Shown one piece after another: positions 3,497-45,032 of a stretch of 49,971 nt of DNA. The notes below the pieces were generated by a model, which saw nothing but the letters and a program-made list of their open reading frames with translations, did no database searches and had not been told where the DNA came from. This DNA is from a virus: positions 1 through 49,971 of the IMG/VR virus record IMGVR_UViG_3300044630_005024, one strand, 5' to 3'. The translations under genes were made by a program, and so were the position numbers. Numbering within the stretch: position 1 is the first letter of the stretch; each line of letters begins with the position of its first letter.

Positions 3497-4378
3497 GTGG
3501 CGAATTATTACGATACATTAGGACTTGATACGAATGCAACGAAAGACGATATTAAAAAAGCCTATCGTAAACTCGCACTCAAGTACCATCCGGATAAAAA
3601 CCCAGATGGAGAGGGCCGCTTCAAAGAAATTACTGAAGCGTATGAGACCCTGTCTGACGAAACCAAGAAAGCTAAATATGATAGACAGCAGACTAGCTTT
3701 GATTTTAGCGGGTTTCGAGATCACGGCTTTGGTAAATCGGCTTATCGAGAATATCAATACTCTGATTTTAGCTCATTTAATTCAGGATTCAGTCGTAAGG
3801 CTAAAAAGGATCTTGACATCATTCATAATCATCAAGTCGATTTACTAACGGTGCTTACCGGTACTCCATTTGAAGTATCGTATGAAACTAATCAAAGGAG
3901 TCAAACTGTGAGAGTGTCAGTTGATTTGCGAGAAGCTTTTTATGCAATGACAAAAATGAAGAAGGGTCTGTATTCAGTAAAGCTTCGAGTAAAAGGTTAT
4001 GGAAATTCTGGAGAAGTTATAACTCCATGGAGCTCAAACGAAGAGACAGGAGACCTTATTCTCAATGTATTGATCACAACTAACGACATTGAGATAGACG
4101 GATCTGACATTGTACACAATATCTCACTTTCTTTAAAAGATGCCTTGTACCCAGAGGATCTTATTTTTGAATCAGTTGACGGAAAGCGCTATAAAATCAA
4201 GTCTTTTAATACTGATAATTTTAGTTGTATCACAATAAACATTGGCGAAGCTGGCATTCGAAATGAAGCTGGCGGCCTCGGTCGTTATATTTTCAAACCT
4301 TACATCCTAAAACCTGATCTATCTTCACTTTCTGATGAGGAAAAATCAAATCTTGTGAATTTTTTATCTAGATCGTAA
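3497..4378 (+). CDS. J-domain co-chaperone (DnaJ/CbpA-like)
   Basis: A 293-residue protein starting with GTG. Residues 4-65 are a clear J-domain: [20 protein letters not shown], then a basic helix, the invariant HPD tripeptide at about residues 31-33, and a [12 protein letters not shown] helix IV region. J-domains stimulate the ATPase of DnaK-type Hsp70, so this should recruit host DnaK. The rest lacks the CxxCxGxG zinc repeats of DnaJ proper and resembles the substrate-binding C-terminal part of CbpA-type proteins. It is placed just before the head assembly genes on the same strand, which suggests a role in folding or assembly of virion proteins. Together with GroEL and GroES elsewhere in the window it makes a near-complete phage chaperone set. 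Confidence 0.9.
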
Positions 4379-6448: not shown

Positions 6449-8047
6449 ATGGCAACTAAAGTTTTCAAAAGACTTAACGATGCTAGCGTCCGTGAAACTT
6501 GGACTCCTGTACTAGAAGGATATGGTGTTGACCTCAACGCACGTCCTTGGTTAGTAGACTACGCTCACAACCACGCTATCTTCGAAAACGCTGGTGCAAT
6601 CAACGAAGCAGCAGCAGCTCCAGGCTTGTTCTTCCAACAGCCAGGATCAATCAGCTCAATGGGCGCTATCGCAGCTCCAACAAGCGCAATGACCCCTTTC
6701 TCAGCAGGTGGTGTAAAAGGAACTACCGCAGGTTCTGGTGATAAATTCCCAAGCTTGATGCCTGTAGCTATCCAAGTAGCAGCTAAAACTATCGGTTTCG
6801 ACCTAGTTGGTGTTGTTCCTATGGATTCTCCAGTAGGTTTCCTTCCTTACCTTGACTATGTTTACCAAGGTGGTAATGTAGGTACGTCTTTCGAGCCGTT
6901 CCTAATCAAAGTAACTGACTCAGCAGCAGTAACTGGTACTTCAACTGGTGATGGTACTGGCTCAGGCGATACAATCGACGCGGCTAACCACTCATTCAAA
7001 TATGTTGGTTTATCACGTGTTGATGGTCACCCAATCTACAAAGTAGTTTCAGTTGACGATGCTTCAACCGTAACTGTAGCACAAGCTGCAGTTGACGCTG
7101 GTATCGCAGCAACAACTGCTGGTGTAGAATTAGTATCAGCTCTTGAAAACCATATTTCTGGTTTTACATCAGTATCTGATGCTGACTACGCTGGAACTGA
7201 CTTCAACGGTCCATTCTACGAAACAACTGGTTCACAATCAGCTTTCGGAATGACTCGTGAAAAAGCGGAGCAATCAAAATTCCGTCAAATGGGTCTTCGT
7301 ATGTTCACTAAGTTCATCGAAGCAAAAGGCGACCAAGTTGCGATCTCTGCATCAGTTGAGCAAATCCAAGACCTTAACAGAGTATGGAACTTCGACGTTA
7401 TCTCAATGTTGGAGAACGTAGCTGTTAACGAGCTTGCACAATCAATCAACAAGAAACTTGTTGACCGTGTAGCTCAATTGGGTGCTACTCACGCAACTAA
7501 AGCAGCTACTCTAGAAGGTGTATCTAGCACTCTAGCTTCATTGCTTGATCCAGCTGCAACAGGAGCTGACGCTCTAACTCTTCAAGCTAACCAACGTAAA
7601 GTTGTTACTAAGATCCTTGAAATCGCAAACCTAATCTACCACAGAGGACGTTTCGGTGCAGGTACTTTCGTAGTAACTAACGGTCGTATTGCTTCTGCTC
7701 TAGCAGACGTATCTGGCTACGTTATCGCTCCGTTCAACAACGATCTTCCTTCTGGAGCAGGTCAGTTGTACCCAGCTGGTAAAGTATACGGATTGACTGT
7801 ATACGTTGACCCTAACATGAAGTTCAACGACAACCGTATCATCATCGGCCGTAAAGGTGCAGATGAGGAGCCGGGTGTTAAATTCCTTCCATATATCATG
7901 GCCGAGTCTCTTCAAACTATCTCTGAGGGTACATTCTCTCCGAAGATCGGTATGAAGTCTCGTTATGCTATCACTGAGGCTGGCTGGCATCCTGAAACTC
8001 AATACTTCACTCTTGGAGTAACTGGTTCAAGTTTCCTAATGGCGTAA
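6449..8047 (+). CDS. Major capsid protein, gp23-like
   Basis: A 532-residue protein similar in layout to T4 gp23 (521 residues), which forms the hexamers of the head. Recognisable blocks are VAAKTIGFDLVGVVPMDSPV at about residues 110-130, the following FLPYLDYVYQGG, and the C-terminal KIGMKSRYAI region. The N-terminal 53 residues look like a removable propeptide: the sequence AINE then AAAAPG at Glu53/Ala54 fits gp21-type cleavage. It follows the protease/scaffold fusion by 22 bases with an A-rich leader and no Shine-Dalgarno sequence, and it ends before a strong terminator. Codon choice looks more uniform than in neighbours (many GCT, GTA, AAC), as expected for a very highly expressed gene. 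Confidence 0.93.
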   Translation: MATKVFKRLNDASVRETWTPVLEGYGVDLNARPWLVDYAHNHAIFENAGAINEAAAAPGLFFQQPGSISSMGAIAAPTSAMTPFSAGGVKGTTAGSGDKFPSLMPVAIQVAAKTIGFDLVGVVPMDSPVGFLPYLDYVYQGGNVGTSFEPFLIKVTDSAAVTGTSTGDGTGSGDTIDAANHSFKYVGLSRVDGHPIYKVVSVDDASTVTVAQAAVDAGIAATTAGVELVSALENHISGFTSVSDADYAGTDFNGPFYETTGSQSAFGMTREKAEQSKFRQMGLRMFTKFIEAKGDQVAISASVEQIQDLNRVWNFDVISMLENVAVNELAQSINKKLVDRVAQLGATHATKAATLEGVSSTLASLLDPAATGADALTLQANQRKVVTKILEIANLIYHRGRFGAGTFVVTNGRIASALADVSGYVIAPFNNDLPSGAGQLYPAGKVYGLTVYVDPNMKFNDNRIIIGRKGADEEPGVKFLPYIMAESLQTISEGTFSPKIGMKSRYAITEAGWHPETQYFTLGVTGSSFLMA

Positions 8048-25823: not shown

Positions 25824-28800
25824 ATGGCAGAAAAATTAAATCTGAATAGGTTCAAATCAAGCGGAGTCTATACGGTGGAAATTGACGAGAGCGTCAATCT
25901 TAGCCTACCTATCACAACTGGTCGTTTAGTGATCGGTTCTAGTAAGAAAGGCCCAATCAATGCAGTAGTTGCAGTAAATGATCTAAGAACTCGTTTAGCA
26001 GTATACGGCGAGAACGACACTAAGCTCGAAAAGAACGGAAGCTATTTCCACAGAACAATTGACGTTGCTTTACGTGAAGGTCCAGTATTCGCACTTAACA
26101 TAGTACCAGTAACTGATTCTGATCAGGCATACTTTGCAACGTTTAACACAGAGTCGGCTTCAGGAAACACACCTTGGACAACAAATCAATTCAAGAGCAA
26201 GATTTCCGATTTCTATAACACTCAAAAACTTTGGTTCGCTAGCATCGACCAGCTAAACAAGACTAAGAATATTGTTCTAGGTAATGGTGACTGGGTTAAC
26301 TCAGGTACTAACTACGGAAACGTAGATAAGGATGCAAATAAGATCCTTAGTTTTGTAAACCTTGGTAAAAAGGACGTAACTATTTGGACAAGAGTCGCAG
26401 ACGTAACTGGATACGATTTAACTGTTGGGGAATACTACAAGCTTCTTGGAGCAAATGTTGAAATCCCTGAATTCTTAAATGTTGACGACGTCGTTGCAGA
26501 CTTTTTCGTAGAAGCGGTTGTAGTTGAAGGAGATTGGTCTGATTACTTAAAGCTCAGCCAAGATCCAATTTACAAACAATATTTTACTGAACAAGGATTG
26601 ATCATCTCTAAGCTTAATGATTTCACTGCACTTAGAGAGGTTACTGTTGTAAATAAGGCAATTGGCTGTATTATTCCAGATTTCAGAGACCTTACTAATG
26701 CAAACGTTGCGATCGACAGAGTATTCAATAGAGCATTTGCTCAATCTGGAGTATTCTGTGCTCTTGATTTTGGAAAAGTAGATATTATGGATCTTACTGA
26801 AGATGCATTTGATGCGTCTAATACAGAAAACGTTCGCACTCACCGCCTTGACCTAGTTGGACACGGTTTTGATGAAAATCAATACTACGTTGATGCTGAC
26901 GCTGAAAACCTTAGCCCATTGATTGATGTACTTTCACACAGAAAAGCGGCTGACAATAACTTGTCATTTAGAGTTCAAAACACAAATGCAACTTTAAGTA
27001 ATGGAGCATTGGGAGAAACTCACGCAATCGCTTTAACTACTTCAACGATTTACACACCAACTGCAGTTTCTTTTAGCGGTTCATCTACTGCAACATCAAC
27101 TACTCTCCATAAAGTACCTGGTGATGTAACTGGACAGATCACAGTTGGTAAATACTTGCAAACTACTGGTAACACTTACGTTGCAATCTCAAATGTTACG
27201 TATAGCGTAATTAATGACAATACTGAGATTACTCACGCAGCCGGAACCATTGCAGTATCAACTAGCTCAATCAACATCTACACACAATCAACAACTACTC
27301 TTAAGTACTTAGCTGCTTATGAGAACGGATTGGTTTGGAATGCTTGGAAGAAAGGTATCATTAAGAGTGGTGATAAGCATGGCGCCAAATACATCAAAAT
27401 TGATGGAGCAGTAAAAACCACAACAGTTGGCGGAAGCACTATCAAATATATTGAAGTTAACGCATATTCTGATGTTACTCTATTAAACCAAGTAACAGTA
27501 GATACAACTGCTTACAATTCAATGAACTTCTTCAATGTTATTACTTCTCAAGATTCATTCAAGAAAGTATTTGACTTGACGAATTCTTCTTACTTTAATG
27601 GTTCTTACCAATACTTTGCTCCTAATAAGTTAGTATTCACATTGAATCCTAATCTATACGGAAACACTGCTAAAGGAGAACCTGTAAATAATAGCTACGA
27701 TTCAACAAAGAGAACAGAAATCGATGAGTTCTTTAAAGTTGGCCAATACCTTAAAGCTAACGTGTCTGGCGGTAGAGGACGTCTCTTAAAGATTACATCA
27801 GTGGTTGCTCAAAAAGTAACGGTAAACTCTTCGATTACATTGAAATACACAGTTACGACAGTTTCACCCGCTGCAACTACAACATCAGGTCTAGATTTAA
27901 CAGGTAACACAGTATCTTGCTACAAAGGTATTAAGAATTTCGTTAAGACAGCGGTAGGTATTAAAGTTCCAGCTCTTTCATGGTCAGAAGCAGATCTATT
28001 CCCTAATGGAACAGCTGCTAGACAAGAAGATATTTTGAACTACATGTTTGAATCTACTAATCTTGCTTCAACTCTAGCTGACGGAGAAACTATTGATTTC
28101 AGATACATTATTGACTCGTATGAAGGTCATGTTGATGCAAGCTCTAAATCTCCATTGGTCCAACTTGCAGCAGATCACGGTAAGTGTTTAGCTATCCTAA
28201 ACGATCCATCGTTCCAACAACTTGAAAGATCAACTGATCCTAGCTTTATTGATCCTATCACTAAGCTAGTTTCAGCCGAGTATATCGCAGCTGGTGGAGA
28301 TCTTAGTCAAAACCCAAGCTTCCAATTTGGATTTGCCGCTGGTGAGAAAAATGGTATTCCATTACAGTCTTACGCTGCATACTTCATGCCTAACTTAGTA
28401 ATTCAAGAAAACGGTAGAAATAAATCAGTTCCACCAGCAGCTTATGTTTCTAATGTATTTATGAAGAAATACAGAAGCGGTAACACATTCTCTATCGCAG
28501 CAGGTAAGAGAGGTATTATCACTGATCCAGAAGTCGTAGGTGTAGAATACGATCTAACAAACGAAGACAGAGACTTCTTAGAGCCAGCAGGACACAACTT
28601 GATCGTAAGACGTAGAGGTTTCGGAATCATGGTATTCTCAAACAATACAGCTTATCAAAGAGTTAAGTCAGCCCTCAATAACATCCACGTTAGAGAAGCG
28701 CTCGTTACAATTGAGAAAGATATTGAAAGAATCCTTCTTAACTTCCTATTCGACTTCAACGATCCAATCACTAGATTGAGAGTTAAGACTCTAGTTAAAA

Positions 28801-29021
28801 ACTATCTTGAAGCAGTTAAGGACGCGAGAGGAATCACTTCTTACGATATTGTTTTCGACGAAAGTAATAACGGACCAGAAGTTCTTGAGAATAATGCCGG
28901 AATCGTTGATATTATTATCGACTTCCCAAGAGGAATTCACAAGTTCATCAACCGTATCACTATCACAAGAGCAGGCGGTCAACTATCTTCACAATCAAGT
29001 GGATTTACTCCTTCTTTCTAA
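25824..29021 (+). CDS. Tail sheath protein, gp18-like, with large insert
   Basis: A 1065-residue protein, against 659 in T4 gp18. The sheath contracts to drive the tube into the cell. The N-terminus has the sheath pattern SSGVYTVEIDESVNLSLP and GRLVIGSSKKGP (residues 12-45). The C-terminal 200 residues contain the conserved domain: RRRGFGIMVFSNNTAYQRVK, VREALVTIEKDIERILLNFL, and FPRGIHKFINRITI near the end. Roughly residues 380-680 are T/S/V-rich beta sequence not needed for the core fold. They are probably surface domains projecting from the tail. Two tandem late-promoter-like motifs precede it and a strong hairpin follows. Confidence 0.9.
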   Translation: MAEKLNLNRFKSSGVYTVEIDESVNLSLPITTGRLVIGSSKKGPINAVVAVNDLRTRLAVYGENDTKLEKNGSYFHRTIDVALREGPVFALNIVPVTDSDQAYFATFNTESASGNTPWTTNQFKSKISDFYNTQKLWFASIDQLNKTKNIVLGNGDWVNSGTNYGNVDKDANKILSFVNLGKKDVTIWTRVADVTGYDLTVGEYYKLLGANVEIPEFLNVDDVVADFFVEAVVVEGDWSDYLKLSQDPIYKQYFTEQGLIISKLNDFTALREVTVVNKAIGCIIPDFRDLTNANVAIDRVFNRAFAQSGVFCALDFGKVDIMDLTEDAFDASNTENVRTHRLDLVGHGFDENQYYVDADAENLSPLIDVLSHRKAADNNLSFRVQNTNATLSNGALGETHAIALTTSTIYTPTAVSFSGSSTATSTTLHKVPGDVTGQITVGKYLQTTGNTYVAISNVTYSVINDNTEITHAAGTIAVSTSSINIYTQSTTTLKYLAAYENGLVWNAWKKGIIKSGDKHGAKYIKIDGAVKTTTVGGSTIKYIEVNAYSDVTLLNQVTVDTTAYNSMNFFNVITSQDSFKKVFDLTNSSYFNGSYQYFAPNKLVFTLNPNLYGNTAKGEPVNNSYDSTKRTEIDEFFKVGQYLKANVSGGRGRLLKITSVVAQKVTVNSSITLKYTVTTVSPAATTTSGLDLTGNTVSCYKGIKNFVKTAVGIKVPALSWSEADLFPNGTAARQEDILNYMFESTNLASTLADGETIDFRYIIDSYEGHVDASSKSPLVQLAADHGKCLAILNDPSFQQLERSTDPSFIDPITKLVSAEYIAAGGDLSQNPSFQFGFAAGEKNGIPLQSYAAYFMPNLVIQENGRNKSVPPAAYVSNVFMKKYRSGNTFSIAAGKRGIITDPEVVGVEYDLTNEDRDFLEPAGHNLIVRRRGFGIMVFSNNTAYQRVKSALNNIHVREALVTIEKDIERILLNFLFDFNDPITRLRVKTLVKNYLEAVKDARGITSYDIVFDESNNGPEVLENNAGIVDIIIDFPRGIHKFINRITITRAGGQLSSQSSGFTPSF

Positions 29022-29739: not shown

Positions 29740-29750
29740 GTTATTTATTG
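29740..29750 (-). promoter_or_regulatory. Late-promoter-like motif immediately before HAD gene
   Basis: On the minus strand CAATAAATAAC ends four bases before the ATG at 29736. The core is intact but the spacing would give a nearly leaderless mRNA, unlike the 21-24 bases elsewhere. Confidence 0.45.
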
Positions 29751-30065
29751 AACTCCTATCGTTACGCCGATTGCATCCTCTGGAGAATCAAAGATTCCGA
29801 GGACGTCGTTAGCCATTACCAAATGGTAAAGCTCGCCATGCAACGTGATGTCCATTCCAGCATATCGTTGATAGAGGACAGTATCACCTACTTTAATTGG
29901 TAGTTTTGAATCTGCGACCAAAGGTCCACATTCAATAACTGTGCCAATATTTGGTCTCTTTCGAGCCTCAACTGGTAGCACGATGCCTGTCTCAGTAACG
30001 TCTTCTTTTTTATTTGGAAGAATTAGCACTCTTTCAAAGGCTGGTAAAAATCCGGTTTTTGCCAT
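29745..30065 (-). CDS. groES: GroES co-chaperonin (Cpn10)
   Basis: A 106-residue protein of the true Cpn10 family. Residues 7-35 match the start of the beta barrel and the mobile loop that binds GroEL (ERVLILPNKKEDVTETGIVL). Then follow IGTVIECGP, the VGDTVLYQRYAG strand and YHLVMANDVLGIF near the end. Bacterial GroES is usually about 95-97 residues; here there are about 10 extra C-terminal residues. T4 uses gp31, which is structurally similar but very divergent in sequence. This protein is much closer to the bacterial type. The cognate GroEL is at 43446-45032, not adjacent. It lies two bases after the RNase H gene on the gp32-to-groES transcript. Confidence 0.93.
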   Translation of the reverse strand: MAKTGFLPAFERVLILPNKKEDVTETGIVLPVEARKRPNIGTVIECGPLVADSKLPIKVGDTVLYQRYAGMDITLHGELYHLVMANDVLGIFDSPEDAIGVTIGVQ

Positions 30066-34422: not shown

Positions 34423-36822
34423 TTATGATCCGCAAGCAAGACAATCTTCTGGATTGTCCAAAGAACAACTGATGTTTTCTAGATCAACTGTTACATCTTG
34501 AACATTAAGTTTCGAAATGTCTACACCAAGCGACTGAATAGCATCGTTTGCGCTCTCAGTTCTGAGGTAGTACATTCCAGTCTTAAGACCTTTTCTCCAA
34601 GAATGAAAGTGAGCTGAAGTCAACTTAGCTGTGTTTGCATCCTTAATGAACAGGTTTAGCGACTGAGACTGGCAGATGAATCGACCTCGGTCGGCTGACA
34701 TATCTATTAAGTCTTTCTGTTTGATCTCCCAAACGGTCTTGTAAATCTCCTTAAGTTCAACTGGGATCTCAGGAATATTTTGAATCGATCCGTTTTCCTT
34801 AATGATCTTCATTCTCATTTGATCAGACCAAAGATCAAGAGCAATAAGGTCCTTAATTAGATGCTTGTTAACTGTAACGAACTCTCCAGCAAGGGTACGG
34901 CGTGTTCCGATATTTGAGGTGAATGGTTCGAATGCTTCATTGTTACCCATGATTTGAGCGGTAGAAGCAGTCGGCATTGGCGCAAGAAGTAAAGAGTTTC
35001 TAGCTCCATGCTTCATGACCGCTTTACGAAGCTTTGCCCAATCCCAACGTCCTGAAAGCTGCTCATCTGAGAAACCCCATAGATTGAATTGAAATTCTCC
35101 CTTAGAAAGCGGACTACCTTCAAATGATTCGTATGCGCCTTCTTTCTTAGCTAGATCAACTGATGCTGACATTGCGGCGAAGTAAATCGTTTCAAAAATG
35201 TCAGAGTTCATCTGTTTTGCCTCATCACTCGTGAAAGGAATTCCCATGATAGCATATAGATCAGCTTGTCCTTGAACTCCGATTCCGATTGGTCGATGTT
35301 TCATATTTGAATTTCTAGTCTCTGGAGTCGGATAGAAGTTTACGTCTATAACTTGGTTCAAATTAAGAGTTGTTTGATATGCAACATCATAGAGAGCTTG
35401 GTAATTATATTCAGCTGTGTGCTTCTTAAGTTTTCCGGATCTCTTACCTAATGTGACAAATTTGTTAACTGGAATTGATGCTAAGTTACAAACAGCCGTC
35501 TCATCCTTTGAGGTGTATTCCATAATCTCAGTACATAAGTTTGAAGACTTGATTGTACCTAGATTCTTTTGATTTGATTTCTCGTTTGCTGCATCTTTAT
35601 AAAGAATGTAAGGAGTTCCAGTTTCAATTTGAGATTCTAAGATCTTTTGCCACAATTGGCGAGCTTTAATCGTCTGTCTGCCTCTACCTTCTTGCTCAAG
35701 GCGAGTGTAGTTTTCTTCAAATTCTGCACCATACATTTCCCATAAAGGAGTTTGGATCTCGTTTGGATCAAATAGTGTCCAATCTGCATCAGCTTCAACT
35801 CTCTTCATAAAAAGATCTGATGTCCAAAGCGCCAAGAAAAGGTCACGTGCTCTGCGCTCTTCCTTACCATGGTTCTTGCGAAGATCTAACCAATCTTCAA
35901 CGTCAGCATGCCAAGGTTCCAAATAGATTGCAAATGAACCTTTTCGCTTTCCTCCGCCTTGATCTACGTAACGAGCAGTCTCATTGAATACTCTAAGCAT
36001 TGGTACGATTCCATTAGACGTTCCATTCGTGCCCTTAATGTAAGAACCTGTCGCTCTAACGTTGTGAATCGCTAGTCCAATACCTCCAGCATTCTGCGAG
36101 ATCGCTGCAACATCGGCAAGTGTCTTATAGATTCCCTGAATGGAGTCATCGTCCATCATAAGTAGGAAACAGCTTGACAATTGTGGACGTTTTGTTCCAG
36201 CGTTAAATAGTGTTGGAGTCGCATGCGTCATTTGGTGAGTTGATAATAACTCATACGTTTTGATCGCTTGCTGAATATTGTTTCCCCAAATACCAACCGC
36301 AACTCTCATATACATGTGTTGAGGAGTCTCTGCTACTTGGCCATTCGTCTTTAGAAGATAGCTTCTCTCCAGAGTCTTGAAACCAAAATAATCGAACACA
36401 AAATCTCTATCGTGAATCACTGATTCATTTAGCACATTTTTGTGTTTCATAACAGCTTGGTATGTCTCGTCAGAAATTAGCCCCGCATTAAGTCCAGTTT
36501 TCGGATCAACGTACGAATATAGATGTTCTATCGTATCGCTGAATGATTTCTGAGTCACTTTGTGAAGTCTAGTGATAGCTATTCTTGCGGCCAGAATTGA
36601 ATAATCTGGGTGCATGTAAGTCAACCCAGCGGCAGTTTCTGCAGCTAACGTATCAAGCTCATGTGAGCTTATTCCATCGTAGATTCCAGCAACGACTTTA
36701 GTTGCTACTTCCAATGCATCGATGAAGTCTGTATCAAGATCATAAGTTTGTTTCTTGATACGATTTGTAATTTTGTCTAATCTAAGGGTTTCTAAATGCC
36801 CGTCTCTCTTTAATACTTTCAT
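34423..36822 (-). CDS. nrdA: Ribonucleotide reductase class I large subunit (NrdA)
   Basis: A 799-residue subunit reducing ribonucleoside diphosphates to deoxy forms. An N-terminal ATP-cone (residues 1-90, [20 protein letters not shown]) implies allosteric dATP/ATP control. Active-site segments are [11 protein letters not shown] (first redox Cys), [11 protein letters not shown] (Asn, Cys, Glu) and [12 protein letters not shown] (second redox Cys). The C-terminal tail EDCLACGS carries the C-x-x-C pair that exchanges electrons with thioredoxin or glutaredoxin. Size is slightly above E. coli NrdA (761) and T4 NrdA (754). nrdB lies 21 bases upstream in the same transcript. Confidence 0.96.
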
Positions 36823-36843
36823 TGTTCTGTTTGTTGCTTTATT

Positions 36844-37809
36844 TTAGAAATCTTCATCAGTTGAAAATGCTGAGTCATTGCCAGATTTTACTCCAGCCTT
36901 CTGGTATTCACCAACCCTTTTCTCAAAGAAGTTGGTTTTTCCTTTAAGTGCAATATTAACCATGAAATCAAAAGGATTTGATGAGTTAAACACTTTTTCA
37001 CAGCCTAAGTCGATAAGCAGACGATCTGCAACGAACTCAAGATACTGCTTCATGAGGTCAGCATTCATACCGATTAGTCTAACAGGCAACGCTTCAGTTA
37101 TGAATTCTTTTTCGATCTCGAGCGCAGAAAGAATGATTTCCTTTATACGATCTTGAGAGACCTTATTGACAATGTGGTTATTATGAAGGTGCACCGCAAA
37201 GTCTGTATGAGAGCCTTCGTCTCTTGAAATAAGCTCGTTTGAGAAACTTAGTCCAGGCATGAGCCCGCGTTTCTTGAGCCAGAAAATAGAACAAAAAGAT
37301 CCTGAAAAGAAAATTCCTTCGACTGCAGCGAATGCAATTAATCTTTCTTGGAAAGAAGAGTTTTTAATCCAACGAAGAGCCCATTCAGCTTTCTTTTTGA
37401 CAGCAGGAATTGTATCAATTGCATTGAATAGTGTATCTTTCTCAGCTGGATCAGTAATATAAGTATCGATTAAGAGGGAATACGTCTCTGAGTGGATATT
37501 TTCCATCATGATTTGGAACCCATAGTAAAACTTTGCTTCTGGGTATTGCACTTCGCTAACAAAGTTTTCTGCAATGTTCTCGTTTACAATACCGTCACTT
37601 GCTGCAAAGAAAGCAAGCACATTTTTGACGAAGTATCTTTCGTCATCGGTTAACTTAGTGCGCCAATCAACAAGATCGGCGGCAAGATCAATCTCCTCAG
37701 CTGTCCAAAAGGAAGCTTCGGCTTTCTTATAAAAATCCCACAGATCGTGGTGCTGGATAGGAAAGATGACAAATCGGTTGGGATTCTCTACTAAAATAGG
37801 CTCCATCAT
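36844..37809 (-). CDS. nrdB: Ribonucleotide reductase class I small subunit (NrdB)
   Basis: A 321-residue radical-generating subunit. Di-iron ligands and the radical site are visible: the Asp/Glu area [19 protein letters not shown], then [18 protein letters not shown] with the E-x-x-H pair and the candidate radical Tyr, and later E-x-x-H in [19 protein letters not shown]. The C-terminal [14 protein letters not shown] tail would bind NrdA. The gene precedes nrdA by 21 bases. A small ORF and a TATAAATAAT motif lie immediately upstream. Two adjacent ATG codons could start it. Confidence 0.95.
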
Positions 37810-37995: not shown

Positions 37996-39186
37996 TTACT
38001 CGGAAAAGCCGAAATTGATGTTATTCTTGATAATGTCAACCTCTGTGATCGTCAGTAAACCTTCACTTGCAATTTTCATCTTACCTTTTAGATGGGATAC
38101 GTCCATGTTGAACGAATCTGATGTGCCGGCTATAAAAATAGTGAGAACGTTATTGTCTTTATTGAATTCGTATTCGTGCTCTTTGTTAAGAGTTCGATCT
38201 TTTAGCGTCTGCCAAGTTAATTTGTCAGCATTAATTAGATCTCTACTGGTAGTCAGAATGATTCTTGGCTCTCCTTTCTTAAGGACAATATCCTTAATGT
38301 AGAAGTCGATCTCCTTTCCGGATTCGAAACCTGCAGTATCTTTAGCATAGTTTGCGAATTCTGTCTTGTGGAGAAGACCGGTAAAGTAATTTTGGAACTC
38401 GATGAACATTCCGAAATCGTATGGCTTGTTCGTAAGAGTACCAGTATACTTTTGGCCAAAATTCAATTCGTGGATTCTATCAGGAAGAGTGTGCTTGATG
38501 TATTTCTTGTAAGAAACGATGAACAAGTCATTTGCTTGATCGTAGTTTTCAATCATAACTGGAATCTCCTTGTTCAAGTAATCATTAAAGTCTCTGATTA
38601 CGTTGGCAGCTGCGTGCGAACCTGGTAAGAAACATTTTACGCCACCCTTGTAAGTACATAGGTATCCGCCCTTGACAAGAGAATTGACTTTGATATAGAA
38701 CCATTGATTTGTTTTTTGGAACTCTTCTAGATCCTCGCGGTGTGCGATAGTAGAGCACTTACGCTCTGATGCAAGGAATTCGCCGTTATCTGCTTTATAG
38801 ACAACTACTTTAAACTCGCGATCAGTCTCTCCATGAATGAGTAGCGCAGGTTCATGTGAGAACTCTCTAAATGGAACGTATAGAGTTGTGTATGTTGCAT
38901 TGTCTTGCACAACGATTTGCTTGGCTTCAAAATCTACTTGCTTAGCAACGACTTTACAGATTTGACCAGCAGCAAGATCCTTGGAGCCAGTTATTTCATG
39001 TCCGTTGAAGTACGCATTGTACTTGTCATATAATTCCTGAGCGTAAGGTTCTTTACAGAAAATCTTGAGACCTGCCTTACGATCAGCCTCTGTCAATTTG
39101 ACTGATGTGTTGTACTTAGACGAAGGTTGGTTGAGGATGTCCTCAACATTTTGATCGTCGAAATTGGATGAGTTTATTTTGTTCAT
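37996..39186 (-). CDS. Ribosomal protein S1-like protein (tandem S1 domains)
   Basis: A 396-residue protein with at least two, probably three, S1 (OB-fold RNA-binding) domains. Domain B, residues about 161-235, has VNSLVKGGYLCTYKGGVKCF then LPGS, matching the V-x-G-x-x-GG-(F/Y)-x-x-x-x-G-x-x-(A/G)-F-x-P-x-S signature. Domain C, residues about 238-315, has FGQKYTGTLTNKPYDFGMFI, then TGLLHKTEF and an IDFYIKDIVLKKGEPRIILT end. Domain A, about 68-115, is more diverged. Bacterial S1 brings mRNA to the 30S subunit, which matters for messages without a Shine-Dalgarno sequence. I infer that it diverts host ribosomes or a host S1 partner toward phage messages. Phage replicases can also borrow S1, so other roles are possible. 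Confidence 0.82.
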   Translation of the reverse strand: MNKINSSNFDDQNVEDILNQPSSKYNTSVKLTEADRKAGLKIFCKEPYAQELYDKYNAYFNGHEITGSKDLAAGQICKVVAKQVDFEAKQIVVQDNATYTTLYVPFREFSHEPALLIHGETDREFKVVVYKADNGEFLASERKCSTIAHREDLEEFQKTNQWFYIKVNSLVKGGYLCTYKGGVKCFLPGSHAAANVIRDFNDYLNKEIPVMIENYDQANDLFIVSYKKYIKHTLPDRIHELNFGQKYTGTLTNKPYDFGMFIEFQNYFTGLLHKTEFANYAKDTAGFESGKEIDFYIKDIVLKKGEPRIILTTSRDLINADKLTWQTLKDRTLNKEHEYEFNKDNNVLTIFIAGTSDSFNMDVSHLKGKMKIASEGLLTITEVDIIKNNINFGFSE

Positions 39187-39241
39187 ATCGTTACGTTAAA
39201 TATAGTAACTTATACGACGTTTCTCACCAAAGTTTTCATTT

Positions 39242-42200
39242 TTATACTCTGGGCGGTGGAACAAATAGAGTCGGAAAGGTCGAAACTCCATACATGCCAG
39301 GAAGTTTTGTTTTGAAAATTAAAGTGCCCAAAGACATGTGAGTTGACCTATGTAAGATTTCGTCCAAAAATATAGCGAACAATGGATTTTTTCTAGTTAA
39401 TCTTTCCCAAGGCGGAAGATCATCTTGATTAAAAATTGGATGGAATTGTCTTGCAACCAATACTCCAGGGCCACCAGTTGAGCAGAGAACAACGGTTCCC
39501 ATAAAAGCTATTTCTTTGAGACCAATTTCTAATTTTTCAAAAACAGGCAGAGCAGTTGCTAAGAATATTGGATAGATGTCCATATTCACATTGCTTACTT
39601 TTAAGCCTTTCGCAATTGCTTCTTGGATCGCTAATTTAATTTGCTTAATTATTGCTCCAATTGGATTAACTAGATCTAAAGGAGTTAAAGAGCTCCATGA
39701 ACCAGATGGAATTAGGTTTAGGATTGGAATTACTATCTCTGAGATTGGTTGAAGAATTGAATCTAACGCAGCATTAATTAAATTCTTGAAAAATGAAATG
39801 ACATCGGTATTCATCATGAATCCGAAAAATGCAAGCATATCTAAAGGAAGATCTGGAAAAAGTGGCAATTTGATTTTTTTACCATTAGGTAGAGTAATTT
39901 CAACTTGATTTGATCGGATTCTCTGTAGTCGAACAATTCCAAAAGCTCCACAATCAATTTCTCGAATAACTTCTTTGATGTCAAGTGTTGAGTTGACACC
40001 TTTGCCTGAACCAGTCTTTCCTAGGTTATTTAGCAAATCTGACATTAATCTGAAGATCGCTTGGATTAATGCAGCAAGAGCAAGCTTTAATAGCGGCTTA
40101 ATTATTGCATCAAGAGGAATCTTAATTTGGATTGGCAATGGAGGTTTTCCAGGAATTGGAAGTTCCGGTAAAGAAATTGCTGCAAGAATTGGAGTTAAAA
40201 TAGATCCAATTAATGCGCTAGGACTAAATGATGCAGGAAGAGGTATTGGCGGTATTGCTCCCAATAGTGTACCAAACATTCCAGTGATTGCGCTGACGCT
40301 GACTGATTTCAGATCACTGACGTTTAGCATCTTTTTTATATCTTCTTTAGTTAAGCCATCAATGAGTGCAGCAGATAGACTTGTAAAAATAGCAAGAACT
40401 GCAAGAACTTCTGGCCGAACTCCTTTAAATAATGCATCTGATTTCGATTCGCAACAAGGTTTACTTGGGTCAAAGACTGAAATTTTAGGTGGAGAAGCAA
40501 ATGCGACTGCAGTAAACGATAAAGCTTTGACTAACAAATCTTGCATTTCATTAGCTGCATCGGCCATTTCTTTTTCTTCTTTCTTATTTCTAGCTTCGCT
40601 TGTATCTACTGACTGCTGCTTTCCCTTAAAATAATCGGTGGCCTTTTTCGAAAGGTTCTTTAATGCATTTTTGAATTCGACGATATCTTCATCTTTTTCA
40701 AGATTAAACGACTCCTTTGAAGTAAGATCTCGAGGATTTATCTTTTTGACGCGTCTTTTGATCTTCTTAACTAGATCAGTGTCTGTTGCAACTTTTAATT
40801 CGCCACGGCCTGCCATTTCAAGCAAATCCATAACACTAGTGATTGCTGCAGATAGATGCGGATTTAATTTAGAAGGATCGTCTGGATATATGATTTCGCC
40901 TAGTGTTAAATTATCGATTAATTTATTAGACTCATCAATCATTGCACGAATTTTTGTCTCAAGATTAATTGGATCAACCTTTCTAGCAAGAGTTTTTAAG
41001 TCTCGTCTTTTCTTGGAGTCTGGTTCTAATCTCGCTTGCTCTGTATCGTTTTGTCTAGCATCTTTTATTTTTCGCTTCAAATCATTAACGCTAGTTGTTG
41101 CAAAATCATCAAACGAATCTATTTGCTTGTTTATCGTTGATCGGATTTTTGTGACAAGACGTTCGTAATCTTGAGCTGGTGTAGTCTCGATAGAATTGAG
41201 AGCGACTTCATCGCCTGTTAAAATTGAATTTCTTGCAGCATCCACCGAAAGTTCTCCTCTATCTCCTGGCGCAAGTTTGCCATTTGGCATAGTAACTGCT
41301 GGCAATTTACCTTGCGCAAGGTCAGCTGTAATCTTTGCGATTTTTGCAGCTTTCGCAGCAGCTCCAGTTAATTTAATTGGAATGGTAAATGCTCCTTTAA
41401 TTGGAAGACCTGCGTATGGACCATTTAACCCTAACGGATTTTGAGCAGACGAATCAAATTCAAATCCTAATTTTGCCTGATTAGGTAAAACTAGTGATGG
41501 TAAATTTGGTCCAAATAGCATGTACTTGCTGCCGTCTGGTGCTAGATAAAAAATAAAGATAGACGGTAATGGAATAGGAACTGGTGATGGAAAGCTTATA
41601 GGCAGAGCTATCATTGGAACAATTGTGCCTATTGGCGAAGAAATAACTGAGAGTACTTTCCAAGTTTGAGGTAGAGTTACTATAATTGGACCGGGAAAAG
41701 CGGGAATCAATCCATTAACTGGATAATACCTAAAGAGTGGTGCAGTAAGATCCGGAATTGGTAGAATTCCTAGGAGTGTCAATTCTTCAGCAAAATATTT
41801 CCAATAACAGGGAGTAGTCATATCTGGTAGACTTGCATCATTTCCAGTTAATGTGCGTATTCCGAATGGATCGGTCCCTCTCTTAGGTTTTATTGCATCT
41901 TCACAATTTCCACCAGCCGCATTTGCTTTAGCGGCAGGTCCTCCGAAACATTTAATTTGTAGTAGCTTCTTTTGAAGTTCTTCTGGATCGCCAGCTGCCT
42001 CCTTTATGAGAAGGTCAATATTTTGTAGTTCGAGATCAATTCGGTCAATTACACTAGAAACTAGTTTAGCTGACTCTTGATATATTTGAAGAACTTTTGG
42101 TAAGGACTTTGACGTTGCTGGGTAAGTCTTTTTATCAAAGACTGTATCTTGTGAAAGAGTTTGAGCAATATTTCCTTCTCGTAAATGATGAGCTGCTTCT

Positions 42201-43357
42201 CTACGAGCAAGAGCTTTAATATTTTCAATGTTTGCTGCAATATTTGCTGGATAAACTTCTTCTCGTTCCTTCTTGCTTCGACTAACAATTTCTGGACCTA
42301 GATTTTGATAAAATGCCTGATATTTTTCAACATTTTTTATGAAGAATAGACGGTCATCTTCTTTGAAAGTTTTGGGTAAATCTGGATTTCCTGAAAGTAT
42401 TGGATCAACTTCATCAGCTTTTATAGTAAGCCCGCGTTCGTCAAGCGTAAATAGGTTTTGAATAGGCGCACGCAAAGTCTTAAATAAACCGCGATATCCT
42501 CCAGCTCCATCATATAGTTTCGAAGAGACGTCAATATCGTTTTGTGCTTTACTTGCTGGAATATATGTGACGTAACTGCTAATATTATTCATCACATTAG
42601 TATCTTTCAGGAATCGATTACGTCGTATTTGAATTGTTTTGTCTTCTTGGCCATCTTTGATCGTTGCATTAATTAATTCGTAAAGACGTAATTCAAAAGT
42701 AACTAAGTTGTCTTTTGCGGTTGGTATGATTTTTCCTGAAATTACTTTGAATTTACCTCTCAAATCATTTAGATACTCTGTGTATTTTGGATTAATTTGA
42801 TTGGTGTTCACTGGCCCATACGTTGTTGGAACAGTTATGTATTGATTAGGAATATCTTTATATTGATCAATTAGATCCTTTGCTTTATTGGCCGCGTTTT
42901 TTTCGAGCTTATTGATCTCTTGCTGAAGTGCGATCCTTGCTGCTGGGTTTATCGTAGCTTTAAGTTTGTCCCTAGCTGCCATAGTTTCAGCAGTGATTGG
43001 GTTGACTGCGCTAGACACGGCTAAATAAAATCTAAGTCTTTCTACAAGATAAGAATCAATCAAAACAAGATTAAAACGAATTTCGTCGAGTCGGCCTTTA
43101 ACTGCAGACAATTCGACTAAGTCTTTCATTTTATCTCGACTGGCGCTTAAGATTGCATCAGCCTCTTTTAGAGCAGCTGGCAAACATGATTCTTCTAGAG
43201 AAACGGCTGGTGGCGGAGAAGCTGGTTTAGCTTTTTCCAAAGGCGGCAGACAAGACTTGACCTTTTTGAGATCGTCTTCTGAGAATCCAGTTGGAGTAAT
43301 GTCTCCACATTCTATCTTTTCGAGTAAGTCCTTAAAGTCTTTGGCCACGTAGTGCAA
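39242..43357 (-). CDS. Very large hypothetical protein (1371 residues), probably structural
   Basis: One unbroken frame, TTG start at 43357 or GTG at 43348 (VAKDFKDLLEKIE). I recognise no family. Residues 1-130 are helical with a P-rich stretch (LPPLEKAKPASPPPAVSLEE). Residues 130-480 are charged and helical. Residues about 540-680 are unusually rich in P, I, L and F (PGPIIVTLPQTWKVLSVISS), but prolines make ordinary membrane helices unlikely. Residues 760-960 are basic/acidic helical and 1000-1371 again P/L/I-rich. A CCESKSDALF motif and scattered Cys are present. Size and domain mosaic suggest a baseplate, tail or injected virion protein. The minus-strand location next to groEL separates it from other structural genes. 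Confidence 0.7.
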   Translation of the reverse strand: MHYVAKDFKDLLEKIECGDITPTGFSEDDLKKVKSCLPPLEKAKPASPPPAVSLEESCLPAALKEADAILSASRDKMKDLVELSAVKGRLDEIRFNLVLIDSYLVERLRFYLAVSSAVNPITAETMAARDKLKATINPAARIALQQEINKLEKNAANKAKDLIDQYKDIPNQYITVPTTYGPVNTNQINPKYTEYLNDLRGKFKVISGKIIPTAKDNLVTFELRLYELINATIKDGQEDKTIQIRRNRFLKDTNVMNNISSYVTYIPASKAQNDIDVSSKLYDGAGGYRGLFKTLRAPIQNLFTLDERGLTIKADEVDPILSGNPDLPKTFKEDDRLFFIKNVEKYQAFYQNLGPEIVSRSKKEREEVYPANIAANIENIKALARREAAHHLREGNIAQTLSQDTVFDKKTYPATSKSLPKVLQIYQESAKLVSSVIDRIDLELQNIDLLIKEAAGDPEELQKKLLQIKCFGGPAAKANAAGGNCEDAIKPKRGTDPFGIRTLTGNDASLPDMTTPCYWKYFAEELTLLGILPIPDLTAPLFRYYPVNGLIPAFPGPIIVTLPQTWKVLSVISSPIGTIVPMIALPISFPSPVPIPLPSIFIFYLAPDGSKYMLFGPNLPSLVLPNQAKLGFEFDSSAQNPLGLNGPYAGLPIKGAFTIPIKLTGAAAKAAKIAKITADLAQGKLPAVTMPNGKLAPGDRGELSVDAARNSILTGDEVALNSIETTPAQDYERLVTKIRSTINKQIDSFDDFATTSVNDLKRKIKDARQNDTEQARLEPDSKKRRDLKTLARKVDPINLETKIRAMIDESNKLIDNLTLGEIIYPDDPSKLNPHLSAAITSVMDLLEMAGRGELKVATDTDLVKKIKRRVKKINPRDLTSKESFNLEKDEDIVEFKNALKNLSKKATDYFKGKQQSVDTSEARNKKEEKEMADAANEMQDLLVKALSFTAVAFASPPKISVFDPSKPCCESKSDALFKGVRPEVLAVLAIFTSLSAALIDGLTKEDIKKMLNVSDLKSVSVSAITGMFGTLLGAIPPIPLPASFSPSALIGSILTPILAAISLPELPIPGKPPLPIQIKIPLDAIIKPLLKLALAALIQAIFRLMSDLLNNLGKTGSGKGVNSTLDIKEVIREIDCGAFGIVRLQRIRSNQVEITLPNGKKIKLPLFPDLPLDMLAFFGFMMNTDVISFFKNLINAALDSILQPISEIVIPILNLIPSGSWSSLTPLDLVNPIGAIIKQIKLAIQEAIAKGLKVSNVNMDIYPIFLATALPVFEKLEIGLKEIAFMGTVVLCSTGGPGVLVARQFHPIFNQDDLPPWERLTRKNPLFAIFLDEILHRSTHMSLGTLIFKTKLPGMYGVSTFPTLFVPPPRV

Positions 43358-43445: not shown

Positions 43446-45032
43446 TTACACTGAAAGGTCAGTAGGCGGTTGAACCATTAAGCAGTCTGTTGTTATGAGC
43501 AGAGATGCAATTGAAACTGCATTCTCCAATGCACATCTAGTTACTTTCACTGGGTCAATGATTCCTGATTCAAGCATGTTGACATACTCTTCAGTTTTAG
43601 CATTGTATCCCAGATCAGGATGATCAGAAAGTCTATTCCAAATAATATCTGCATTAAGACCAGCATTGGCTAAAATTGCTTCAAACGGTCTGTGGCACGC
43701 AGTTATCAAAATTTCTTTACCGAGTTCTTGATCTCGAGTCGGTAGCGTGAGTGATGCTTTGACATGCTCACTGGCTCTATAAAGAGAAATTCCTCCGCCT
43801 GGAATAATTCCCTCTAGCACAGCAGCTTTTGTTGCACCTAGTGCATCATCAATTCTATCTCGTTTTTCTTTAGCTTCTACTTCAGAAAATGCGCCGATTT
43901 TGATAATTGCGACTCCGCCTTGAATCTTTGCAAGTCGCTCCTTTAACATTAATTTAGTCGACTCTGTAGAAGTTGCTTCAATTTGAGCCTTTAGACTTTC
44001 AACTAATTCGGCAATCTTTGTTGATTCACCAGAGCCACCAACGATAGTTGTAGAATCGCCAGTGATTGTTACTCTTTCGGCTGAACCTAAAACGCTAGTT
44101 GCAACAACTTCTTTTAGGATCATACCTTCTTTTTCGGATACAGTTTTACCACCAGTTACAGTTGCAATGTCGTCTAGTCTAATTTTGCGTTGGTCTCCGA
44201 AACCTGGAGATTTAACAGCAGCTGCTTTAATTGTTCCACGCAGTCGGTTAACGATTAGAGTATTAAGAGCTTCACCATCAACTCCATCAGAAATAATGAG
44301 AAGCGGACGATTGCTTTTGTTTGAATACTCTAAAAACTGGATAATATCATTCAATGACGAAATCTTACCATCATATAGTAGGATCAATGGATTATCAAAT
44401 TCAATTGTTCCTTTTTCTGGATTGTTTACTAAGTATGGAGAAAGGTATCCGTTATTAAACTGCATTCCCTCTACGATTTCTACATAGGTTTCTGCAGTTT
44501 TACTTTCAGCGACTGAGATGATTCCATCAAAACCGACTGCCTCCATCGCGTCGGCAATTATTTGACCAATTTCTTCATCATTATTTGCAGAAATTGTTGC
44601 GACTTGTTTAACTGTTGAAATATCTTCAACTTTAATGGCTTTTGATTTTAGGTACTCAACGATTGCCTTTGATGTGGCTTCGATTCCCTTTTTAAGTTCC
44701 ATTGGGTGTGCTCCTGATTCTACCATGCGATTGCCTTCCTTGAAGATAGCATGAGAGAGGACTGTTGCTGTTGTTGTACCGTCGCCGGCTTCAAATGCAA
44801 CTTTTTGTGCAACTTGTTTTACGAGTTGCGCGCCTACATTCTCTTGATAATCTTCAAGATCAACTTCTCTGGCAACTGTCACACCGTCTTTGGTAATTGC
44901 TACTGAATTATCACGGGCAATAATTACATTACGTCCTCTTGGACCTAGTGTAACTTGAACCGCTTCGGTTAGTTTTTCAATACCGCTTGCTAGTTTTTGA
45001 CGAGCGCTAGCTCTAAAGTTCATATCTTTCAA
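43446..45032 (-). CDS. groEL: GroEL chaperonin
   Basis: A 528-residue complete group I chaperonin (bacterial GroEL is about 545). N-terminal VTLGPRGRNVIIARD, the ATP-site GDGTTTATVLSHAI (about residues 86-99) and the catalytic Asp region IDDALGATKAAVLEGIIPGGG (about 390-410) are intact. The apical domain SPGFGDQRKIRLDDIATVTGG is also plain. The end, TDCLMVQPPTDLSV, lacks the G-G-M repeat tail of most bacterial GroEL. The copy looks diverged rather than recently captured, with the same AT-rich codon style as its neighbours. GroES is at 29745-30065. A phage-made folding chamber would probably fold capsid or tail proteins. It follows the exonuclease gene by 16 bases. Confidence 0.96.
   Translation of the reverse strand: MKDMNFRASARQKLASGIEKLTEAVQVTLGPRGRNVIIARDNSVAITKDGVTVAREVDLEDYQENVGAQLVKQVAQKVAFEAGDGTTTATVLSHAIFKEGNRMVESGAHPMELKKGIEATSKAIVEYLKSKAIKVEDISTVKQVATISANNDEEIGQIIADAMEAVGFDGIISVAESKTAETYVEIVEGMQFNNGYLSPYLVNNPEKGTIEFDNPLILLYDGKISSLNDIIQFLEYSNKSNRPLLIISDGVDGEALNTLIVNRLRGTIKAAAVKSPGFGDQRKIRLDDIATVTGGKTVSEKEGMILKEVVATSVLGSAERVTITGDSTTIVGGSGESTKIAELVESLKAQIEATSTESTKLMLKERLAKIQGGVAIIKIGAFSEVEAKEKRDRIDDALGATKAAVLEGIIPGGGISLYRASEHVKASLTLPTRDQELGKEILITACHRPFEAILANAGLNADIIWNRLSDHPDLGYNAKTEEYVNMLESGIIDPVKVTRCALENAVSIASLLITTDCLMVQPPTDLSV

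What the first reader, a model, noticed from the sequence alone, without database searches (positions are those of the whole stretch)
37996..39186. Phage-encoded ribosomal protein S1-like factor
Two clear S1 domains and a third diverged one in a 396-residue protein with no other recognisable domain. Phage S1 homologues are rare as far as I know. Leaders in this window lack Shine-Dalgarno sequences, so mRNA delivery by S1 could be the limiting step. The factor may favour phage mRNA or block host S1.
Basis: partly seen in the sequence, partly recalled or inferred. Interest (0 to 1): 0.7.

Follow-up and report, generated by a model that had tools for sequence, protein, structure and literature searches.

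The report
Phage copy of ribosomal protein S1
A large virus of bacteria of the Bacteroidota kind carries a shortened copy of the ribosomal protein that delivers messenger RNA to the ribosome, probably to steer the host's protein factory towards viral messages; such copies have been reported before, but they prove common and well preserved in this virus group.

Summary
The ORF is real (37996-39186, minus strand, 396 aa). It is a genuine bS1 homologue, not just an OB-fold protein: rpsA models match at E about 1e-22, and the predicted structure has four OB folds. Three match bS1 OB1-OB2-OB3 in order; the fourth is degenerate; OB5-6 are absent. OB1-3 is the minimal active S1 in E. coli. The mRNA pocket of OB2 and the RNA-binding residues of OB3 are kept, and OB2 is the best conserved part. 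The uS2 anchor is recognisable in the family but partly lost in the window's own protein. Relatives are not rare: 213 candidate IMG/VR stretches, Lak phages, and 462-735 kb huge phages, forming one clade apart from cellular bS1. Al-Shayeb et al. 2020 already reported phage S1 and its link to missing Shine-Dalgarno sites. That link is confounded: Bacteroidota phages without S1 lack SD equally. Likeliest role: the protein docks on the host 30S in the S1 position and delivers A-rich, SD-less phage mRNA. Blocking host S1, or acting off the ribosome, remains open. A new member of a known kind.

The parts
37996..39186 (-). phage bS1-like gene, 396 aa
   Evidence: ORF; rpsA models E ~1e-22; family alignment A3; one copy in each of four large relatives searched
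38962..39186 (-). N-terminal extension, residues 1-75. Relatives carry a Bacteroidota-bS1-like F[DNE]W motif or FDLLF here; the window has a diverged form (NFDDQNVEDILN)
   Evidence: residues 1-22 mostly pLDDT < 50
39004..39042 (-). helix 49-61 (AQELYDKYNAYFN) just before OB1, at the place of the uS2-binding helix of bS1; Y56 aligned with E. coli F9, tyrosine in 29 of 30 phage rows
   Evidence: register uncertain
38767..38961 (-). OB1 (residues 76-140)
   Evidence: AlphaFold2; structural alignment to bS1 from residue 17
38512..38700 (-). OB2 (residues 163-225), with bS1-type K172-G-G-Y175...F186-L-P-G-S; most conserved domain
38251..38451 (-). OB3 (residues 246-312), canonical S1 RNA-binding residues F258, F261, H273, R308
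38002..38181 (-). OB4 (residues 336-395), degenerate OB barrel
   Evidence: weak structural matches to S1 domains; the equivalent region in 462-735 kb phages is a clear S1 domain
39187..39206 (-). leader ACTATATTTAACGTAACGAT, no Shine-Dalgarno site
34423..37809 (-). nrdA and nrdB, downstream neighbours in most relatives; conserved context, not part of the mechanism
39242..43357 (-). 1371-aa protein of unknown family, upstream neighbour in more than 20 relatives; conserved context

Best explanation
The gene encodes a phage-lineage version of bacterial ribosomal protein bS1, cut down to the part that E. coli work shows to be sufficient for S1 activity on the 30S subunit (OB1-OB3), plus a degenerate OB4. 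During infection of a Bacteroidota host it docks at the S1 site on the 30S platform (near uS2) through its N-terminal helix and OB1. OB2 lies at the mRNA exit channel and OB3 holds single-stranded mRNA, so the phage's A-rich, SD-less leaders reach the decoding site. It thereby supplements or replaces host bS1. Shown: sequence and structural homology to OB1-OB3 of bS1, conserved RNA-facing residues, strong conservation of OB2, long-term maintenance in a phage lineage. Inferred: ribosome docking, mRNA delivery, preference for phage mRNA.
For: rpsA models match across OB1-OB3. The top PDB fold hit is bS1 in the 30S mRNA delivery complex (9gut_B, E 1.5e-17; Z 13.9 over 235 residues, model 70-317 against bS1 17-263). 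The OB2 mRNA pocket of E. coli (K117, F120, F130; PMC10123108) is K172, Y175, F186 here, with K in 24 of 30, Y or F in 30 of 30 and F in 30 of 30 phage rows. OB3 Y205, F208, H219, R254 are F258, F261, H273, R308. OB2 is the most conserved domain (85% mean pairwise identity against 60% overall, dN 0.01-0.04). In E. coli, OB1-OB3 retains mRNA and 30S binding and RNA melting (PMC3858243). The N-terminal F[DNE]W motif is in 73 of 73 Bacteroidota bS1 and in 23 of 69 phage S1 against 0.26 expected. Phage leaders are A-rich; adenines at -12/-13 promote initiation in Flavobacterium johnsoniae and bS1 has been proposed to read them (PMC6847099). Added bS1 raised initiation on one SD-less mRNA two-fold with F. 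johnsoniae ribosomes (PMC9976891).
Against: No ribosome or RNA association has been tested for any member. K43, which enters the uS2 zinc pocket in E. coli, is Y99 in the window (K in only 12 of 30 phage rows). The F[DNE]W motif is only a diverged remnant in the window's protein. E. coli with S1 lacking OB4-6 grows extremely slowly (PMC3858243), so a truncated S1 may not be a full substitute. Phages of the same hosts do without the gene.
Confidence: 0.58

Rival explanations
1. Decoy or competitor: the phage protein occupies the S1 site (or binds host bS1 or mRNA) and lowers host translation that depends on the full-length six-domain S1, as a host shut-off factor.
For: It has the docking half (OB1-OB2) and lacks OB5-6, with OB4 degenerate. 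In E. coli, truncated S1 forms that still bind the ribosome are lethal or support very slow growth (PMC3858243).
Against: OB3 and the OB2 mRNA pocket are kept under strong constraint, which a pure blocker would not need. The phage's own leaders are SD-less as well, so a blocker would hurt the phage too. In the 462-735 kb relatives OB4 is an intact S1 domain, so truncation is not the shared feature of the family.
Confidence: 0.17
2. Off-ribosome RNA binder: an mRNA chaperone or protector, or a transcription-associated factor, descended from bS1 but no longer docking on the 30S.
For: Weakened uS2 anchor in the window (K43 to Y99; diverged N-terminal motif). Host bS1 has extraribosomal roles, for example in Q-beta replicase and as activator of T4 RegB (PMC13157829).
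Against: OB2, which in bS1 sits at the mRNA exit channel on the ribosome (PMC10123108), is the most conserved part, above OB3. No RegB relative was found in four large relatives of the window; T4 as positive control gave E 1e-69.
Confidence: 0.2
3. Ordinary phage OB-fold protein with only generic S1-domain similarity and no relation to bS1 function.
For: Pfam detects only one S1 domain just above its cut-off.
Against: Domain order and OB2 signature are specific to bS1; rpsA models score E ~1e-22, whereas single-S1 families (CvfD/GSP13, PNPase) score 0.006-0.04.
Confidence: 0.03

Closest known systems
Possible rpS1 proteins of huge phages (Al-Shayeb et al. 2020, PMC7162821)
   Same: Same family by homology: Lak and the LR745206/LR756500-504 records are hit at E 4e-12 to 4e-23 for the best of them and join one phage clade with 100/100 support. 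The same proposed role, and the same lack of SD sites, were already published.
   Different: The window's phage belongs to a ~250-271 kb T4-like aquatic lineage. Its OB4 is degenerate, and the relatives of that lineage tested lack bS21, which four of the 634-735 kb phages carry.
Cellular bS1 (rpsA), Bacteroidota type
   Same: OB1-OB2-OB3 order, OB2 pocket, OB3 RNA-binding residues; N-terminal F[DN]W segment shared by part of the phage family
   Different: No OB5-6, degenerate OB4, phage-specific sequence after FLPGS (HAAANVIRDF), separate clade
bS1 of Microcystis phage PhiMa05 (PMC13157829)
   Same: phage-borne bS1
   Different: That one is traced to a Vampirovibrio-like host in the paper and comes with five other ribosomal proteins. 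It was not compared by sequence here.
Phage-encoded bS21 (PMC6375957, PMC9723584)
   Same: a ribosomal protein of the mRNA exit region carried by phages, many predicted to infect Bacteroidota
   Different: different protein; bS21 was not found in the three 271 kb relatives searched
A0A6J5NIG6, '30S ribosomal protein S1' of an uncultured Caudovirales phage (BFVD/UniProt)
   Same: 40% identity over 376 columns, E 2e-43 by structure search
   Different: annotation only; no function tested as far as known here

Membership tests
bacterial ribosomal protein bS1 (rpsA) | tandem OB/S1 domains in the order OB1-OB2-OB3 | tested here: met
bacterial ribosomal protein bS1 (rpsA) | OB2 signature KGG(F/Y)...F(L)PGS with the mRNA pocket K117, F120, F130 | tested here: met
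   K172, Y175, F186 and FLPGS in the window
bacterial ribosomal protein bS1 (rpsA) | OB3 RNA-binding residues (Y205, F208, H219, R254) | tested here: met
   F258, F261, H273, R308
bacterial ribosomal protein bS1 (rpsA) | uS2 anchor: N-terminal aromatic helix (F5, F9) and K43 | tested here: inconclusive
   helix present, Y56 conserved in 29 of 30, but F5 position is L52 and K43 is Y99 in the window; K kept in 12 of 30 phage rows. F[DNE]W motif in relatives, diverged in the window.
bacterial ribosomal protein bS1 (rpsA) | full set of six OB domains as in Gram-negative bS1 | tested here: not met
   four OB folds, the fourth degenerate; the Bacteroidota bS1 fetched here that are complete are mostly 586-780 aa
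bacterial ribosomal protein bS1 (rpsA) | falls among cellular bS1 in a tree | tested here: not met
   separate phage clade, 100/100. Grouping phage plus Bacteroidota is not rejected (p-AU 0.354).
bacterial ribosomal protein bS1 (rpsA) | physical association with the 30S subunit and mRNA | not testable with these tools
   needs experiment
phage-encoded rpS1 of huge phages (Al-Shayeb et al. 2020) | sequence homology to the S1 proteins of those phages | tested here: met
phage-encoded rpS1 of huge phages (Al-Shayeb et al. 2020) | encoded in a large phage genome by shared phage backbone | tested here: met
   capsid protein nearest to LR756500, Lak, LR745206 and LR756501-504, the same records that carry S1; relatives of 250-271 kb
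phage-encoded rpS1 of huge phages (Al-Shayeb et al. 2020) | host genes without SD leaders | tested here: met
   1 of 35 against 1.45 expected; not specific, as S1-less Bacteroidota phages are the same
single-S1 RNA-binding regulators (CvfD/GSP13, PNPase) | best profile match to these families | tested here: not met
   E 0.006-0.04 against ~1e-22 for rpsA

The most novel reading that the evidence does not exclude
The phage protein replaces host bS1 on SD-blind Bacteroidota ribosomes and makes specialised ribosomes that prefer the phage's A-rich leaders: a natural case of a virus re-tuning start-site selection where Shine-Dalgarno pairing is not used. The Bacteroidota-type N-terminal motif would be its mimic of the host's docking segment.
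Probability: 0.3. Interest if true: 0.75.

Novelty: new member of a known kind. Interest (0 to 1): 0.42.

Why it matters
A compact phage S1 (OB1-OB3 plus a degenerate OB4), kept by selection in a large lineage of phages of these hosts, offers a small protein with which to test that. The work here also shows that the published link between phage S1 and missing SD sites is confounded by host phylum.

Tried and rejected
1) SD absence as evidence for an S1 role: rejected as uninformative after S1-less Bacteroidota phages gave the same values. 2) bS21 or IF3 as a standard companion: bS21 not found in the 271 kb relatives, Lak or LR756500 and present only in the four 634-735 kb phages; IF3 found only in the 735 kb phage of eight records searched. 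3) RegB partner: none found in the window's relatives; T4 control positive. 4) Sequence link of OB4 to S1 domains: hhalign gave no support (Prob 12% or less), while the same region of the huge phages matched bS1 OB4 at 98.9%. Alone it folds as an OB-like barrel with weak hits, best to M. tuberculosis S1 (E 0.0085, Z 5.2), so 'degenerate OB4' rests on position and fold. 5) Recent capture from a Bacteroidota host: not seen; phage S1 forms its own long-branched clade. 6) Structured leader or promoter signals around the gene: nothing beyond chance. 7) Dedicated PHROG family: the window protein reaches none, and the best of any relative is E 0.006.

Full report
WHAT IS THERE. The ORF 37996-39186 (minus strand, ATG, 396 aa) is intact. 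It lies in a fragment of a T4-like myovirus: major head protein 6449-8047, sheath 25824-29021, UvsX, DnaB-like helicase, late sigma factor, thymidylate synthase, gp32-like protein, NrdA, NrdB, GroEL, GroES, DnaJ. The record itself is a 49,971-base virus fragment. Relatives of the S1 protein at 55-72% identity sit in contigs up to 253-271 kb, and the order GroEL, 1371-aa protein, S1, NrdB, NrdA is kept in most of that lineage. In L028, L030, L031, L046 and L047 the downstream nrdAB has been lost or replaced while S1 stays.

DOMAINS. Pfam alone finds one S1 domain. NCBIfam rpsA models match 68-300 with E ~1e-22; single-S1 families score 0.006 or worse. A profile of 31 phage relatives aligns with OB1-OB3 of E. 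coli bS1 (E 7.6e-27). AlphaFold2 on that alignment gives mean pLDDT 82 and four OB folds at 76-140, 163-225, 246-312 and 336-395, with helices at 33-37 and 49-61 and a disordered start. The best PDB match is bS1 in the 30S mRNA delivery complex, with Z 13.9 over residues 70-317 against bS1 17-263. The overall TM-score is low (0.33) because the domains are flexibly placed. OB4 folds as an OB-like barrel on its own but has only weak matches and no profile support. In the 462-735 kb phages the same region is a clear S1 domain, so a loss of character in the window's lineage is the simplest reading. Lak phages end before OB4.

RESIDUES. I mapped published contacts of E. coli bS1 (D'Urso et al. 2023, PMC10123108) onto an alignment of 30 phage, 18 Bacteroidota and 8 other S1 proteins. 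The E. coli sequence in that alignment was typed from my own knowledge; its residues 30-221 agree with the PDB alignment printed. The OB2 mRNA pocket K117/F120/F130 is K172/Y175/F186. OB3 Y205/F208/H219/R254 is F258/F261/H273/R308. The uS2 anchor is less clear: the F9 position is Y56 (Y in 29 of 30 phage rows), the F5 position is L52, and K43 is Y99 (K in 12 of 30). OB2 is the most conserved domain within the lineage (85% mean pairwise identity against 54% for OB1, 72% for OB3 and 46% for OB4).

N-TERMINAL MOTIF. All 73 complete Bacteroidota bS1 fetched here carry F[DNE]W in their N-terminal extension. Of 69 distinct phage proteins, 23 carry the same motif and 14 carry FDLLF; shuffling gives 0.26 and 0.006 on average. 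The window's protein has only a diverged counterpart. The Bacteroidota set was chosen by similarity to a Flavobacterium bS1, and few bS1 of other phyla were looked at, so phylum specificity of the motif is not proven. That the motif docks on the ribosome is an inference from its place.

HOW COMMON, AND WHERE FROM. With the ten-row alignment A1, 213 stretches in IMG/VR encode a relative. Among GenBank phages the hits with phage context are Lak (Prevotella) and uncultured 462-735 kb phages; some other hits (for example the Acinetobacter, Enterococcus and Listeria records and several unverified fecal scaffolds) look like bacterial DNA filed as phage. All 30 phage rows form one clade with 100/100 support, apart from cellular bS1; the result holds after long branches are dropped, and a joint clade of phage and Bacteroidota is not rejected (p-AU 0.354). 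The nearest capsid relatives of the window are the same Lak and huge-phage records, whereas the next ones, cultured Chryseobacterium, Flavobacterium and Tenacibaculum phages, lack the gene; the three searched whole gave no match. So the gene appears to be an old, inherited part of one group of large phages.

SHINE-DALGARNO. In the window 1 of 35 leaders has an SD-like 4-mer (1.45 expected) and leaders are about half adenine. The S1-bearing groups with 13 or more leaders range from 0 to 10%. But MA9V-2, MaF61 and PTm1, without the gene, have 0, 5 and 0%, against 59% in T4. SD-less, A-rich leaders are thus a property of phages of these hosts in general, fitting Bacteroidota ribosomes, whose anti-SD is sequestered (PMC9976891). 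The association of phage S1 with missing SD sites reported by Al-Shayeb et al. (PMC7162821) may therefore reflect host phylum; this is a small control of three phages and not a survey.

MECHANISM. Duval et al. (PMC3858243) showed that OB1-OB3 of E. coli S1 keep 30S binding, mRNA binding and RNA melting, while cells with S1 lacking OB4-6 grow extremely slowly. The phage protein has just this part, with its RNA-facing residues intact. F. johnsoniae bS1 roughly doubled initiation on one SD-less mRNA (PMC9976891), and bS1 has been proposed to read adenines near -12/-13 (PMC6847099). I therefore put mRNA delivery on the host ribosome first (0.58), an off-ribosome role second (0.20) and a decoy third (0.17). 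Docking, delivery and selectivity are inferred; nothing here tests them.

NOVELTY. Phage S1 in huge phages, the proposed role and the SD link are published, a phage bS1 in PhiMa05 is published, and a close structural relative is annotated as 30S ribosomal protein S1. Mizuno et al. left S1 domains out for ambiguity (PMC6375957). What is added here: domain-by-domain assignment to bS1, the count and single clade, the retained OB2/OB3 residues, the N-terminal motif, and the control on SD use.

Noticed in passing
39242-43357: A 1371-aa protein directly upstream of S1, without any Pfam or PHROG match, keeps its place between GroEL and S1 in more than 20 relatives (24-53% identity).
   Followed up: partly
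L028, L030, L031, L046, L047: The nrdA-nrdB module next to S1 is replaced by a distant nrdA-like gene (22-23% identity) or absent, while S1 and its upstream neighbours remain.
   Followed up: no
29745-30065, 43446-45032 and 3497-4378: The phage carries GroES, GroEL and a DnaJ-like protein, a chaperone set of its own.
   Followed up: partly
LR756501, LR756502, LR756504, LR745206 (634-735 kb): These huge phages carry bS21 together with S1; the 735 kb one also carries IF3. The 271 kb relatives, Lak and LR756500 do not have bS21.
   Followed up: partly
L178, L179, L180 and several unverified fecal records in the phages collection: Records filed as phage hold ordinary bacterial rpsA genes (for example cmk-rpsA-himD), so they look like bacterial contamination.
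   Followed up: partly
phage S1 OB2, e.g. window residues 190-200: After FLPGS the phage proteins share an (A)AN-(I/V)-x-DF stretch that cellular bS1 lacks; a possible phage-specific contact.
   Followed up: no
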